The position numbers and the translations under genes are program-made. The notes under the pieces are model-generated. The model was not told the origin of the DNA. It saw only the letters and a program-made list of their open reading frames with translations, and searched no databases. Positions 17,907 through 38,815 of a DNA stretch of 64,000 nucleotides are shown one piece after another. The number at the start of each line of letters is the position of its first letter. The stretch's first letter is position 1. Source of the stretch: an uncultured Marivita sp. GTDB lineage: Bacteria > Pseudomonadota > Alphaproteobacteria > Rhodobacterales > Rhodobacteraceae. Location: the NCBI GenBank assembly GCA_947503115.1, contig CANNCS010000002.1, positions 1 through 64,000 on the forward strand. The letters run 5' to 3'.

Positions 17907-17970
17907 TGTCAATTATCTTTGACATTTTCGGTCGAGAATCAGAAACTATAGATGTCTGATGTGCTTGACA
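17907..17970 (+). promoter_or_regulatory. Two PpsR sites upstream of ppaA
   Basis: TGTCAATTATCTTTGACA (17907-17924) and TGTCTGATGTGCTTGACA (17953-17970) both fit TGT-N12-ACA exactly and lie 46 bp apart, the second ending 34 bp before the ppaA start. The wider spacing differs from the 22-26 bp pairs elsewhere and could allow looping or weaker control. The 294 bp between bchF and ppaA (17711-18004) hold both this array and the bchF array. Confidence 0.7.
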
Positions 17971-18004
17971 TGTGTCCTGCATTATCGGTTGCGAGGATGT
18001 GACA

Positions 18005-18790
18005 ATGGCAAATGACCATACCGACGATCGCGTGTCTTCCGAGGAGGGAAGACTCGACATCTCTGCTTTGGCGTCAACCGTTCTCTCTGTCATAAGCGAT
18101 AAGGGCGATGAGGGTGCTCAAACAATCCGGAACAGTGTGATTCAGAAGTTGGTGGATGTTGCGCTCCAGCCAGGTGCATTTAACGCCGAACTGCTTCTTG
18201 AGGATCTCAAGGACCGCAGGATCAGTCCCGACCAAATCGTCGATATCTATATTCCCCAAGCTGCACGCGAAATGGGTCGTATGTGGTCGGAAGACATTAT
18301 TGGCTTTGCCAAGGTGACAATCGCCACCGCACGCTTGCAAGGTCTATTAACAATGCTCGCACCGCCTTGGACGGCAAAGCCAACCGAGATCGCAAACGGG
18401 ACCAACGTGCTCTTGCTGCTTCAGGGCAATGACAGTCACACACTTGGGCCGCACGTCGCAACTGCGCAGATGCGACGTGCCGGCGCTTCGGTGCGAATTC
18501 TGTTCGGAGCTCGTGATGAAACCATCATCAGAGCGCTGTCAGAAGAAAGTTACGATATGGTTCTGTTTTCGGGGTCACGCCCCGACGCGCTTGCATCAAT
18601 CGCAAAGTTGGTTAAACGCATAAGGACCGGTGTTTTGGCACCCCCGCCGTTGGTTCTGGGAGGAATTGTTCTGAACCTCGCGGACGGAGTCAAAGAGAAG
18701 ACTGATGTTGATCTGGTGACAAACGATGTGAAGGTTGCGTTGAAGCTGTGCCAAAAGAACAAGTCCAGAAGCAGGTCTTTGACGCGGTAA
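18005..18790 (+). CDS. ppaA: PpaA/AerR, B12-binding antirepressor of PpsR
   Basis: A cobalamin-binding photoreceptor-type regulator that modulates PpsR/CrtJ activity in purple bacteria. It is 261 residues from the ATG at 18005, which has GAGG 8 nt upstream. The N-terminal half is helical; the C-terminal half is a B12-binding (SCHIC-like) domain with LLLQGNDSHTLGPHVATAQM near residue 140, including the likely cobalt-ligand histidine, and LVLGGIVLNLADGV near residue 220. The stop overlaps the ppsR start by one base (TAATG), the conserved regulator pair. Confidence 0.9.
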   Translation: MANDHTDDRVSSEEGRLDISALASTVLSVISDKGDEGAQTIRNSVIQKLVDVALQPGAFNAELLLEDLKDRRISPDQIVDIYIPQAAREMGRMWSEDIIGFAKVTIATARLQGLLTMLAPPWTAKPTEIANGTNVLLLLQGNDSHTLGPHVATAQMRRAGASVRILFGARDETIIRALSEESYDMVLFSGSRPDALASIAKLVKRIRTGVLAPPPLVLGGIVLNLADGVKEKTDVDLVTNDVKVALKLCQKNKSRSRSLTR

Positions 18791-20211
18791 TGAACACAAG
18801 TGGGTCCAGTTTCTGGAGTAGCGGATCCGTTCCACTTATCGACGCCGAGGTCTTGTCGAGTATCATTACCGTTGCGTCTGACATAGCGCTCGTGGTGTCA
18901 CGTGGCGGCAAAGTGCTGTCGGTCATGATCAACCCGAACGAGACATCTTTTGGTAAGTTGAACCATTGGGAGGGACGCCCTCTGATGGATTTTCTGACCC
19001 GCGAAAGTCACCCCAAGATCGAAGCCGTTATGGAGTTGATGGAAAAGGGCGAAACACCATCCCGATCCATCGAACTTAACCACACGGACAACGCGGTTTG
19101 GGAATTCCCGGTTCGGTACAGTTTTCATCCATTTGGTTCTGACGGCTCATTCCTCATGCTGGGGCGCGACCTTCGTCCGATCGCAGAGACGCAGCAACAG
19201 CTTGTGCAGGCGCAAATGTCGCTTGAACAAGGATACGAAGCGCGACGCGAATTCGATTCACGGTATCGCTTGTTGCTAAGAACGGTCCGAGACAACATCG
19301 TTTTCGTTTCAGTCAATGACGGCAAGATCAAAGATTTGAACGACCCGGCGGCGACACTTTTGCAGTCCAGCCGAGATGATTTGATTGGCACAAGCTTCGC
19401 GCAAGAATTTCGTGACAAGCGAACAGAAGAATTTACGGAAGCACTGATCAACGCGTCTATTTCGGAAAGTAACGCGAGCCTCGAAGTTCAATCTCGCCGA
19501 GGACGCCAACGCGTTATGATCACGCCACAGGTGTTCCGCGCCGCGGGCGAGCGCATTCTGATCTGTCGCCTTACCACGTCCGATGAAACAACAGCACGGA
19601 TCGACAACCTGTCGCAGAATCTTTCTGTTGTGTTCGAAAAGGGGCCGGACGCGTTTGTGTTCACATCGGCCACAGGCACGATAGAAGCCTGCAACGATGC
19701 GTTTTTGGACCTTGTCGACGCTGCGCACGCGGTCGATGTGCGGGGTCGCAGCTTTTCGGACTTCCTTGGTCGCGGTCAGATCGACATGAGCGTGTTGGTC
19801 GAAAACGCCCGCCGCACCGGTCAAATGCGGATGTATTCCACCAAGCTGCTTAATGATTTCGGGGCAAAGACTCCGGTCGAAATGTCCGTCACTTTCTTTG
19901 AAGATCGTAGCGAACCGACGCTGGGCTTTGTCATCCGCGACATCAGCCGAGTCGACACAATGCGCAAGGCGCCACTTCATACCAGCGAAGAATCAAACCG
20001 CAATGTGATGGAGTTGGTCGGGTCCGCCACCCTTAAAGAAATTGTCTCGGAAACCACGGACGTTGTCGAAAAGATGTGTATCGAGACCGCTGTTAGCCTG
20101 ACCCGGAACAACCGTGTGGCCGCAGCCGAGATGCTTGGGCTGTCCAGACAGAGCCTTTATGTCAAGCTTCGCAAGTACGGCTTGCTGAACAAGGATGGTG
20201 ACGGCGAATGA
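18790..20211 (+). CDS. ppsR: PpsR/CrtJ, redox-responsive repressor of photosynthesis genes
   Basis: The aerobic repressor of bch and crt operons that binds TGT-N12-ACA palindromes. It is 473 residues from ATG 18790, coupled to ppaA by TAATG. Three PAS-type domains (about residues 15-130, 155-270, 275-395) joined by a helical Q-rich linker precede a FIS-type helix-turn-helix (RVAAAEMLGLSRQSLYVKL, about residues 440-458). Two cysteines, C259 (ILICRLTT) and C430 (VEKMCIET), sit where the redox cysteines of Rhodobacter PpsR/CrtJ occur. Its own predicted targets are the operators listed here. Confidence 0.95.
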   Translation: MNTSGSSFWSSGSVPLIDAEVLSSIITVASDIALVVSRGGKVLSVMINPNETSFGKLNHWEGRPLMDFLTRESHPKIEAVMELMEKGETPSRSIELNHTDNAVWEFPVRYSFHPFGSDGSFLMLGRDLRPIAETQQQLVQAQMSLEQGYEARREFDSRYRLLLRTVRDNIVFVSVNDGKIKDLNDPAATLLQSSRDDLIGTSFAQEFRDKRTEEFTEALINASISESNASLEVQSRRGRQRVMITPQVFRAAGERILICRLTTSDETTARIDNLSQNLSVVFEKGPDAFVFTSATGTIEACNDAFLDLVDAAHAVDVRGRSFSDFLGRGQIDMSVLVENARRTGQMRMYSTKLLNDFGAKTPVEMSVTFFEDRSEPTLGFVIRDISRVDTMRKAPLHTSEESNRNVMELVGSATLKEIVSETTDVVEKMCIETAVSLTRNNRVAAAEMLGLSRQSLYVKLRKYGLLNKDGDGE

Positions 20212-20284
20212 CGCTGCCATAGCGTCTGTACGTCCTATTTAATTCCTAATTTGACCGCGCTGTTTCACTTGATGTGAATCGATT

Positions 20285-20326
20285 TGTCGTGTCTAGTTTA
20301 CACATGACTGTCAGCATTAGTTTACA
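20285..20326 (+). promoter_or_regulatory. PpsR operator pair spanning the bchG start codon
   Basis: TGTCGTGTCTAGTTTACA (20285-20302) and TGTCAGCATTAGTTTACA (20309-20326) are both perfect TGT-N12-ACA sites, 24 bp apart. The likely bchG ATG (20304-20306) lies between them, so the second site is inside codons 2-8. A weak TTGACC (20251-20256) could serve as a -35, with transcription starting just before the operators. Alternatively bchG is read through from ppsR. Confidence 0.75.
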
Positions 20327-21209
20327 CAACGATCGCTATCCTGCCCCTTCAGCCATGCTGGAACTGATCAAACCCGTCACATGGTTCCCGCCGATGTGGG
20401 CCTATGCGTGCGGGGCCGTGGCCTCGGGTGTGGCCATCACCGAACACCTTGGCCTTCTTATTGTCGGCGTGATCCTTGCCGGTCCAGTGGTCTGCGGAAT
20501 GAGCCAAGCCGCCAACGATTGGTGCGACCGACACGTCGATGCGATTAACGAACCGAATCGACCCATTCCTTCGGGTCGTATCCCCGGGCGATGGGGATTG
20601 TGGATCGCGCTTGCGATGTCGACACTGTCACTGGCTTTGGGCGCGACCTTGGGAACCTGGGGTTTCATCGCAACTGTCGTCGGAGTGATTGCAGCTTGGG
20701 CATATTCCGTCGAACCAATCCGACTAAAGCGGTCCGGCTGGTTCGGACCGGGTTTGGTCGGGCTGTCCTATGAATCCCTGCCGTGGTTCACCGGAGCCGC
20801 CGTTCTCAGTCAGACGCTCCCTTCGGGACCAATTATCCTGATCGCGTTACTCTATGGGATCGGTGCGCATGGGATCATGACACTCAACGACTTTAAGGCG
20901 CTCGAAGGTGACGCACAGATGGGAGTGAATTCACTACCTGTCACACTAGGGCCGGAAAAGGCGGCCAAGGTCGCCTGCTGCGTGATGATCGCTCCGCAGG
21001 TTTTTGTCATTCTTGCTTTGGCGAAATGGGGGCAATCCACACACGCCGCGATTGTTCTATTACTCATGCTGGGCCAGCTTTGGGCCATGTCCGTCATGCT
21101 CAAAGACCCAAAGGCAAAAGCGCCTTGGTATAATGCAACAGGCGTCCTGATGTATGTCTCTGGCATGATGGTTTCGGCCTTTGCCCTCCGCGCGATGGGA
21201 GTTGTCTGA
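20304..21209 (+). CDS. bchG: Bacteriochlorophyll synthase (esterase of bacteriochlorophyllide)
   Basis: Attaches geranylgeranyl diphosphate to bacteriochlorophyllide a at the membrane (UbiA prenyltransferase family). It is 301 residues with about eight transmembrane segments. The substrate Asp-rich motif is GMSQAANDWCDRHVDAINEP near residue 65; the second is TLNDFKALEGDAQ near residue 196. The start MTVSISLHNDRYPAPSAMLE resembles, from memory, the Rhodobacter BchG N-terminus, so ATG 20304 is preferred over 20355. No clear ribosome binding site precedes either. The stop overlaps the next gene by one base. Confidence 0.94.
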   Translation: MTVSISLHNDRYPAPSAMLELIKPVTWFPPMWAYACGAVASGVAITEHLGLLIVGVILAGPVVCGMSQAANDWCDRHVDAINEPNRPIPSGRIPGRWGLWIALAMSTLSLALGATLGTWGFIATVVGVIAAWAYSVEPIRLKRSGWFGPGLVGLSYESLPWFTGAAVLSQTLPSGPIILIALLYGIGAHGIMTLNDFKALEGDAQMGVNSLPVTLGPEKAAKVACCVMIAPQVFVILALAKWGQSTHAAIVLLLMLGQLWAMSVMLKDPKAKAPWYNATGVLMYVSGMMVSAFALRAMGVV

Positions 21210-24309: not shown

Positions 24310-25707
24310 ATGTCTGCTGCCACCGCCAGTGATCTGGAACGGTACATGTTGGATCTTGTAAACGAGGAGCGCACAAGCCGCGGCTTGAACGCACTTGTTC
24401 TCGATAAGGTCTTAAACGCGTCCGCTGATGAGCATTCCTTGTGGATGCTTGAAAACAATGTCTTCAGCCATACCGGCGTGGATGGATCCACGCCGACGGA
24501 ACGTATGACTGCCGAAGGGTTCGACCTTTCGGGGTCATGGCGCACTGCTGAAAATATCGCCGCGCAAAGTGAACGCGGCGACGAAGGTCTGTTCGACGAC
24601 GTGTATGATCTGCACCTCGCGTTGATGAACAGTCCCGGACACCGTGAAAATATCCTTATGCCCGATCTCGAGGTCGTCGGCATCGGTATTCAAACCGGCA
24701 CCTATGACTATGGGTCCGGCAAGTATCATTCCGTCATGGTTACGCAGAACTTTGCGATGACCGGCGGTGAAACAACCCCGGATATCGTCGAGCAAACGAC
24801 CCACTCGCCGGAAACGGTCGATACACAACCAGACGCTTCCGGCGTTCTGGTCGGCACAGCAACGGCCGAAAACCTTGTTGGCACAGATCAAGATGACCGG
24901 ATCACAGGGTCCGGTGGCAACGACATTCTGTCCGGCGGGGACGGCACCGATACCGCTGTCTACATGAATGACATATCAAATTACGGGCTGACGATCAGCA
25001 ACGGCTCGATCGTGATCGAAGATCGCAGCGGCGGTGATGGCACCGATACGCTGAATAGTATCGAAATTCTCGAATTCGACGGAACGCCTTTCGAACTCAG
25101 TCGCTTCACCAATGTCAGCACCCTGACAGAAGCTGACATGCTGGCGTTCTGCGAACTCTATGTCGCCTATTTCAACCGTGCACCGGATTCGACAGGCTTG
25201 TTGTTCTGGGGATCGGCACTTGCTGACGGCATGTCGATGAATGACATCGCGCGCCTGTTCTTTGATCAGCCTGAGACCCAAGCGCTTTATGGTGGTTCAA
25301 GCAGCACGGGTGACTTCGTGGCGGCTGTTTATTCCAACATTCTAGGCCGTGCGCCGGATGATACAGGGTTCGACTACTGGACTGGCATTCTGGATAGCGG
25401 CGCCGTCGAGCGGTCCGAATTTATTTTGGCGATGATCGACGGCGCAAAGGCTGCCACCGGCAGTGCCGCAGACGCGCAATTCCTCGAAACCAAGGCGGAA
25501 ATCGGTGCGTACTACGCTGTGGTGAACGGCCTCAACAACGTGTCTGTTGCCAACACCGCCATGCAAACCTTTGATGGAAGCATCGCCTCGGTCGTCGAAG
25601 CGAAAGAGCTTATCGACGATCATGCAGCCTTGGTTGATTCCGCCCTAGGTACGGAGTTCACGATCAGTGTGACTGGCCTTGTCGATGACGCTTTGGATTG
25701 GATTTAA
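24310..25707 (+). CDS. CAP/SCP-domain protein with RTX repeat and two DUF4214 modules
   Basis: A 465-residue protein unrelated to photosynthesis by sequence. Residues ~8-150 form a CAP/SCP (PF00188-like) domain with FSHTGVDGSTPTERM and the signature SPGHRENILMPDLEVVGIG. Residues ~178-215 hold an RTX/hemolysin calcium-binding repeat (GGNDILSGGDGTDTAVY). Two DUF4214 modules follow (YFNRAPDSTGLLFWGSAL and ILGRAPDDTGFDYWTGIL). There is no signal peptide. RTX plus DUF4214 suggests type I secretion and an extracellular Ca2+-binding role, which is inference. GGGGAG precedes the ATG. It lies convergent with dxs, 3 bp apart, at the junction of two PGC blocks. Confidence 0.85.
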   Translation: MSAATASDLERYMLDLVNEERTSRGLNALVLDKVLNASADEHSLWMLENNVFSHTGVDGSTPTERMTAEGFDLSGSWRTAENIAAQSERGDEGLFDDVYDLHLALMNSPGHRENILMPDLEVVGIGIQTGTYDYGSGKYHSVMVTQNFAMTGGETTPDIVEQTTHSPETVDTQPDASGVLVGTATAENLVGTDQDDRITGSGGNDILSGGDGTDTAVYMNDISNYGLTISNGSIVIEDRSGGDGTDTLNSIEILEFDGTPFELSRFTNVSTLTEADMLAFCELYVAYFNRAPDSTGLLFWGSALADGMSMNDIARLFFDQPETQALYGGSSSTGDFVAAVYSNILGRAPDDTGFDYWTGILDSGAVERSEFILAMIDGAKAATGSAADAQFLETKAEIGAYYAVVNGLNNVSVANTAMQTFDGSIASVVEAKELIDDHAALVDSALGTEFTISVTGLVDDALDWI

Positions 25708-36658: not shown

Positions 36659-36702
36659 TGTCAGTTTATTATTACACACATGTCTGTCAACTATAATAGA
36701 CA
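36659..36702 (-). promoter_or_regulatory. bchC promoter with a PpsR operator pair
   Basis: TGTCAGTTTATTATTACA (36659-36676) and TGTCAACTATAATAGACA (36685-36702) are perfect TGT-N12-ACA palindromes 26 bp apart. On the minus strand TTGACA (36690-36685) and TAAACT (36668-36663) form a -35/-10 with a 16-bp spacer, so one PpsR site covers each promoter element. This matches the Rhodobacter bchC promoter layout. It lies in the 143-bp crtF-bchC gap. Confidence 0.85.
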
Positions 36703-38773: not shown

Positions 38774-38815
38774 TGTCATGTTGAGCTGACACACTAGTGT
38801 AAATCATACTGGACA
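38774..38815. promoter_or_regulatory. PpsR operator pair between crtE and crtD
   Basis: TGTCATGTTGAGCTGACA (38774-38791) and TGTAAATCATACTGGACA (38798-38815) are perfect TGT-N12-ACA palindromes 24 bp apart. They fill the divergent gap, so one operator pair can silence both crtE-crtF and crtD-crtC. Core promoter hexamers were not clear by eye. Confidence 0.8.

What the first reader, a model, noticed from the sequence alone, without database searches (positions are those of the whole stretch)
20285..20326. PpsR operator pair straddles the bchG start codon
Two perfect TGT-N12-ACA sites 24 bp apart flank ATG 20304; the second lies in codons 2-8 (encoding TVSISLH). PpsR/CrtJ pairs usually cover -35/-10 elements. 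Here they would act as a roadblock after initiation, or the true start is 20355 and the promoter lies in the operator. Since ppsR is directly upstream, PpsR might also control read-through from its own gene.
Basis: partly seen in the sequence, partly recalled or inferred. Interest (0 to 1): 0.58.

Follow-up and report, generated by a model that had tools for sequence, protein, structure and literature searches.

The report
Repressor site inside bchG's first codons
In this bacterium and many relatives, a binding site for the photosynthesis repressor PpsR appears to be written into the first eight codons of the chlorophyll-synthase gene bchG, so the same letters seem to serve as protein code and as a light and oxygen switch.

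Summary
The two TGT-N12-ACA sites are real (20285-20302, 20309-20326; gap 6 bp) and straddle the bchG ATG at 20304. Among 149 bchG loci of the family, the upstream site is exact in 120 and the coding site in 72, always in the same register; 0.8 is expected if the protein is kept and codons are redrawn. Leu codon 7 is TTA in 54 of 57 genes whose next codon can complete ACA, in 2 of 19 otherwise. The 72 genes encode 72 different residue 2-9 peptides: DNA, not protein, is being kept. A conserved -35 lies 17 bp from a -10-like hexamer inside the first site and there is almost never a Shine-Dalgarno, so bchG is probably leaderless and the pair covers -19 to +23. The motif published for R. sphaeroides PpsR ChIP-seq at bchG is the coding site. 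Outside the family the partner site sits near -47 on the -35 box (18 of 25), never in the gene (0 of 25). The second operator appears to have moved into the coding sequence. A 20355 start is unlikely; a post-initiation roadblock is not needed.

The parts
20285..20302 (+). op1: TGT-N12-ACA (TGTCGTGTCTAGTTTACA), -19 to -2 from the ATG; contains the -10-like hexamer
   Evidence: exact in 120 of 149 family loci at -19/-20/-21
20309..20326 (+). op2: TGT-N12-ACA (TGTCAGCATTAGTTTACA) inside bchG codons 2-8
   Evidence: exact in 72 of 149 family loci, expected 0.82 under a synonymous null; same place as the published R. sphaeroides ChIP motif
20269..20274 (+). -35-like hexamer TTGATG
   Evidence: CTTG lies exactly 17 nt before op1 in 91 of 120 op1-positive loci
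20292..20297 (+). -10-like hexamer TCTAGT, spacer 17, inside op1
   Evidence: the tool's strict consensus scan found no promoter
20304..20304 (+). predicted transcription start = A of the bchG ATG (leaderless mRNA); inferred
   Evidence: geometry; SD-like 4-mer in 1 of 149 bchG loci
20304..21209 (+). bchG, (bacterio)chlorophyll synthase, 301 aa
   Evidence: TIGR01476 365 bits, cut-off 212; PRK07566 403 bits, cut-off 313
18790..20211 (+). ppsR/crtJ, the presumed repressor of the pair
   Evidence: TIGR02040 471 bits, cut-off 275

Best explanation
bchG is transcribed from a sigma-70-type promoter whose start point is the A of the ATG, giving a leaderless mRNA. PpsR binds two palindromes, one over the -10 element (op1, -19 to -2) and one over the first transcribed codons (op2, +6 to +23), and thereby excludes RNA polymerase from the core promoter under repressing conditions. 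In this family the second, cooperating palindrome lies downstream inside the coding sequence instead of upstream on the -35 box, and selection keeps the operator letters at synonymous and N-terminal residue positions. Shown here: the sites, their conservation beyond the protein, the promoter geometry and the difference in placement between families. Inferred: PpsR binding in this organism, the exact start point, cooperativity, and the direction of the evolutionary move.
For: Exact op2 in 72 of 149 loci, at one register only; expected 0.82 (max 4 in 400 runs) with the protein kept and codons redrawn by bchG usage, 8.6 (max 16) with uniform synonymous codons. TGT and ACA halves co-occur (72/32/11/34, p 7e-7), N12 is the dominant spacer (72; next N14 with 12). 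Leu-7 is TTA in 54 of 57 when codon 8 is CAN, 2 of 19 otherwise; the next Leu column has 6.6% TTA; codon 2 ends in T in 104 of 120 when codon 3 is GTN, 4 of 29 otherwise. 72 different residue 2-9 peptides among the 72. CTTG 17 nt before op1 in 91 of 120 and a -10-like consensus at op1 +7..+12; SD-like motif in 1 of 149. The ChIP-seq motif listed for bchG in PMC4344238 Table 2 (7.8-fold; expression value -8.03) is the reverse complement of op2 in L203 and falls in the published peak coordinates. Outgroup: partner site at about -47 in 18 of 25 (at least 5/6), op2 in 0 of 25; family: upper site in 5 of 149. R. capsulatus bchC palindromes at -47/-30 and -21/-4 from the mapped start (PMC5362033, passages) match outgroup bchG positions measured from the ATG (L250, L251).
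Against: No RNA 5' end or PpsR footprint exists for this organism. 47 of 149 family loci have op2 at 4/6 or worse, so it is not indispensable. 15 loci keep op2 but lack an exact op1. The -10 match is weak (TCTAGT) and the generic scan found no promoter. The ChIP peak is 600 bp wide, so its motif is assigned, not footprinted, and the strain identity of G051 is inferred. Loci are related, so p-values are too small; tree-based pairs for op0 against op2 were not significant. The start rule required an ATG.
Confidence: 0.8

Rival explanations
1. The second site is a by-product of a conserved N-terminal peptide (SVSxxLH) and codon usage; only op1 is an operator.
For: V3 and H/Q8 are common; some loci lack op2.
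Against: Synonymous null gives 0.82 against 72 observed; rare TTA codons where ACA can be completed; 72 different peptides keep the site; early codons of the downstream gene use TTA in 3 of 175 Leu.
Confidence: 0.04
2. The true bchG start is 20355 and the pair lies at -35/-10 or in a leader upstream of it.
For: ATG 20355 is in frame; TTTACA 20297-20302 could be a -35.
Against: The equivalent codon is ATG in 55 of 149; promoter elements and op1 are fixed next to ATG 20304; the scan saw no promoter here.
Confidence: 0.05
3. PpsR acts as a post-initiation roadblock on polymerase, including on read-through from ppsR.
For: op2 lies downstream of the predicted start; no terminator was found between ppsR and bchG.
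Against: op1 lies on the -10, so promoter exclusion suffices; the roadblock itself was not tested.
Confidence: 0.1
4. The codon 2-8 letters are an RNA element for leaderless translation or mRNA stability rather than a PpsR operator.
For: Leaderless mRNAs are read through their 5'-terminal AUG (passages of PMC3616915); the TGT half is near the AUG.
Against: Palindromic halves at N12 share op1's letter preferences (TGTCA, TTACA); 0 of 25 outgroup loci have op2; the ChIP motif is at op2.
Confidence: 0.05

Closest known systems
Rhodobacter capsulatus bchC promoter, tandem CrtJ palindromes (PMC5362033, passages read)
   Same: Two TGT-N12-ACA palindromes a few bp apart, one over the -10; repressor is PpsR/CrtJ.
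   Different: bchC has its second palindrome upstream on the -35 (-47 to -30), 8 bp away; here it lies downstream, in codons 2-8, 6 bp away, and the gene is probably leaderless.
R. sphaeroides bchG-pucC-bchP operon, PpsR ChIP-seq target (PMC4344238, passages and Table 2 rows read)
   Same: Same gene; the listed motif is the coding-site op2.
   Different: The passages read describe sites as upstream of operons and do not remark that this one is inside the gene; op1 there is degenerate (5/6 by my reading of L203).
Dinoroseobacter shibae bchF promoter (PMC10890935, passages read)
   Same: PpsR sites over -10 and -35 of a photosynthesis promoter of the same family.
   Different: Those sites lie upstream of the coding sequence.
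Rubrivivax gelatinosus pucB/crtI (PMC4452267, passages read)
   Same: Paired sites whose spacing matters (8 against 9 bp).
   Different: Spacing here is 6-8 bp across loci and spans a start codon.

Membership tests
PpsR/CrtJ tandem operator | Two TGT-N12-ACA palindromes in close tandem | tested here: met
PpsR/CrtJ tandem operator | PpsR/CrtJ encoded in the genome | tested here: met
   TIGR02040 above cut-off, gene directly upstream
PpsR/CrtJ tandem operator | Sites conserved across relatives beyond chance and beyond the protein | tested here: met
PpsR/CrtJ tandem operator | Classical placement on -35 and -10 (bchC type) | tested here: not met
   op1 on the -10; second site at +6 to +23; so a variant placement
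PpsR/CrtJ tandem operator | PpsR binds it in vivo | not testable with these tools
   Only indirect: the published ChIP motif in R. sphaeroides equals op2
Leaderless mRNA | Transcription start at the A of AUG | tested here: inconclusive
   Promoter geometry and lack of SD; no RNA data

The most novel reading that the evidence does not exclude
In this family (Rhodobacteraceae) the cooperating PpsR palindrome of bchG moved from the -35 box into the first eight codons of a leaderless gene. The operator now dictates the N-terminal signature of BchG ([ST]-V-x-x-x-[LI]-[HQ]), a conserved protein motif that is really the shadow of a DNA switch.
Probability: 0.6. Interest if true: 0.65.

Novelty: new variant of a known kind. 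Interest (0 to 1): 0.57.

Why it matters
It shows a repressor operator under dual selection with protein code across a family, and gives a ready system to test how PpsR represses when its second site lies downstream of the start point. It also explains a conserved peptide that would otherwise be read as protein function, and warns that upstream-only scans miss half of this operator.

Tried and rejected
Mutual exclusion of an upstream site at about -55 (op0) and op2: raw counts are 3 both, 24 op0 only, 69 op2 only, 53 neither of 149, but independent pairs on the tree give no support (4 supported pairs), so no claim is made.

Generic promoter/terminator scan: nothing found.

Literature: searches listed no paper whose title, abstract or passages seen report a mapped bchG start or an in-gene PpsR site; (PpsR + leaderless) gave 2 papers off the subject and (bchG + transcription start + Rhodobacter) gave none. 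This covers only the CC-licensed library. Bruscella 2008 (cited in PMC4344238) is not held.

A first start-codon rule chose upstream ATGs in a few loci (such as L115, L125, L145); it was replaced, with one manual override (L165) and L227 restored. For the 25 outgroup loci the starts were typed in from the listing. Of 164 family genomes with a match, 149 were used: G207 was left out because its contig starts at the gene, and the others were not listed by the tool.

Full report
Observation. Both sites are present exactly as stated. They lie 24 bp start to start, 6 bp apart edge to edge. ATG 20304 sits in the gap, and the second site runs from the third base of codon 2 into codon 8. The window has 22 exact single sites against 11.6 expected, and the own genome has 6 close pairs against 0 for the reversed control. 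The window's pairs include 36659-36702 and 38774-38815; a further one on contig C21 precedes two small ORFs that look like pucBA (the names pucB/pucA are my reading of the translations). The gene upstream is PpsR/CrtJ (TIGR02040, 471 bits, cut-off 275) and the gene itself BchG (TIGR01476).

Conservation set. 80 relatives were fetched from named contigs, and 164 of 394 family genomes have bchG. I used 149 (own plus 148 others, nearly all of different genera), with the start chosen by frame and distance to the LIKP motif, not by the operator. Exact op1 occurs in 120 of 149, at -19 (62), -20 (46) or -21 (12). Exact op2 occurs in 72 of 149, always at the same offset; both are exact in 57, op2 alone in 15, neither in 14. 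In the 81 loci (80 named plus the window) the counts are 73 and 41.

Is op2 kept by the protein? No. With each protein fixed and codons redrawn by bchG usage, 0.82 exact op2 are expected (maximum 4 in 400 runs); with uniform synonymous codons 8.6 (maximum 16). Internal control: where codon 8 begins CA, so that ACA can form, Leu-7 is TTA in 54 of 57; where it does not, in 2 of 19. Among 38 well-filled Leu columns the next highest has 6.6% TTA; other early bchG codons use TTA in 8 of 84 Leu, the downstream gene in 3 of 175. Codon 2 ends in T in 104 of 120 loci with GTN next, 4 of 29 without. The halves co-occur (p 7e-7), N12 is the dominant spacer (72; N14 next with 12), and the 72 positive loci have 72 different residue 2-9 peptides. 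Relatedness inflates these p-values, but exact op2 needs at least 32 changes of state on the BchG tree.

Promoter and start. Aligned on op1, CTTG stands 17 nt upstream in 91 of 120 loci and moves with op1, not with the ATG; the columns op1 +7 to +12 read [TC]T[AT]A[GA]T. In the window this is TTGATG, 17 bp, TCTAGT, then TTACAC and the ATG. That is textbook -35/-10 spacing (recalled) with +1 on the A of the ATG. An SD-like 4-mer precedes bchG in 1 of 149 loci (2 of 80 in the named set, against 38 of 76 for the next gene); the operator occupying that stretch contributes to this. The generic promoter scan found nothing, so the promoter rests on conservation. Leaderless mRNAs are documented in alphaproteobacteria (PMC3616915, passages). 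The codon equivalent to 20355 is ATG in 55 of 149.

Binding evidence. PMC4344238 (passages and Table 2) lists bchG-pucC-bchP as a PpsR ChIP-seq target (7.8-fold, chr1 2005000-2005599) with motif TGTAAGGATAGATTGACACT and derepression on ppsR deletion. Of the 229 loci held then, one carries that string: L203, at G051:C4:2005133-2005152. There bchG is on the minus strand, and the string is the reverse complement of op2 in codons 2-8. The peak is 600 bp wide, so the motif is assigned, not footprinted.

Relocation. In 25 bchG loci of other families, an upper site near -47 scores at least 5/6 in 18 (10 exact); op2 at least 5/6 occurs in 0. In the family the upper site reaches 5/6 in 5 of 149, op2 in 102. 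Two outgroup loci (L250, L251) have exact pairs at -47 and -21 from the ATG, the positions of the R. capsulatus bchC palindromes from its mapped start. The simplest reading is that the second palindrome switched from upstream to inside the gene. A further family variant has a site abutting the -35 at about -55 (27 of 149 exact). Direction of change and cooperativity are inferred.

Verdict. The sites, conservation beyond the protein and geometry are shown; PpsR binding here and the transcription start are inferred. It is a known kind of operator in a new, family-wide placement.

Noticed in passing
L025, L031, L036, L066, L067, L078 and others, about -55 from the bchG ATG: A third TGT-N12-ACA abutting the -35 (TTTACAcTTG), exact in 27 of 149 family loci, mostly where op2 is weak.
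   Followed up: partly
window 24310-25707: An ORF of 465 aa between idi-like and dxs-like genes whose start resembles a secreted CAP-domain protein; unusual inside a photosynthesis cluster (my reading of the translation only).
   Followed up: no
G000:C115:8083-8122 (outside the window): A close operator pair with only a 4 bp gap on another contig; target gene not examined.
   Followed up: no
window 17953-18787: The ORF in the ppaA/aerR position gives no NCBIfam hit; an operator at 17953-17970 ends just before its first GTG at 17972, so its true start is unclear.
   Followed up: no
L061, L212: bchG with no recognisable op1 or op2 next to the start; possibly a different promoter or an operon.
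   Followed up: no
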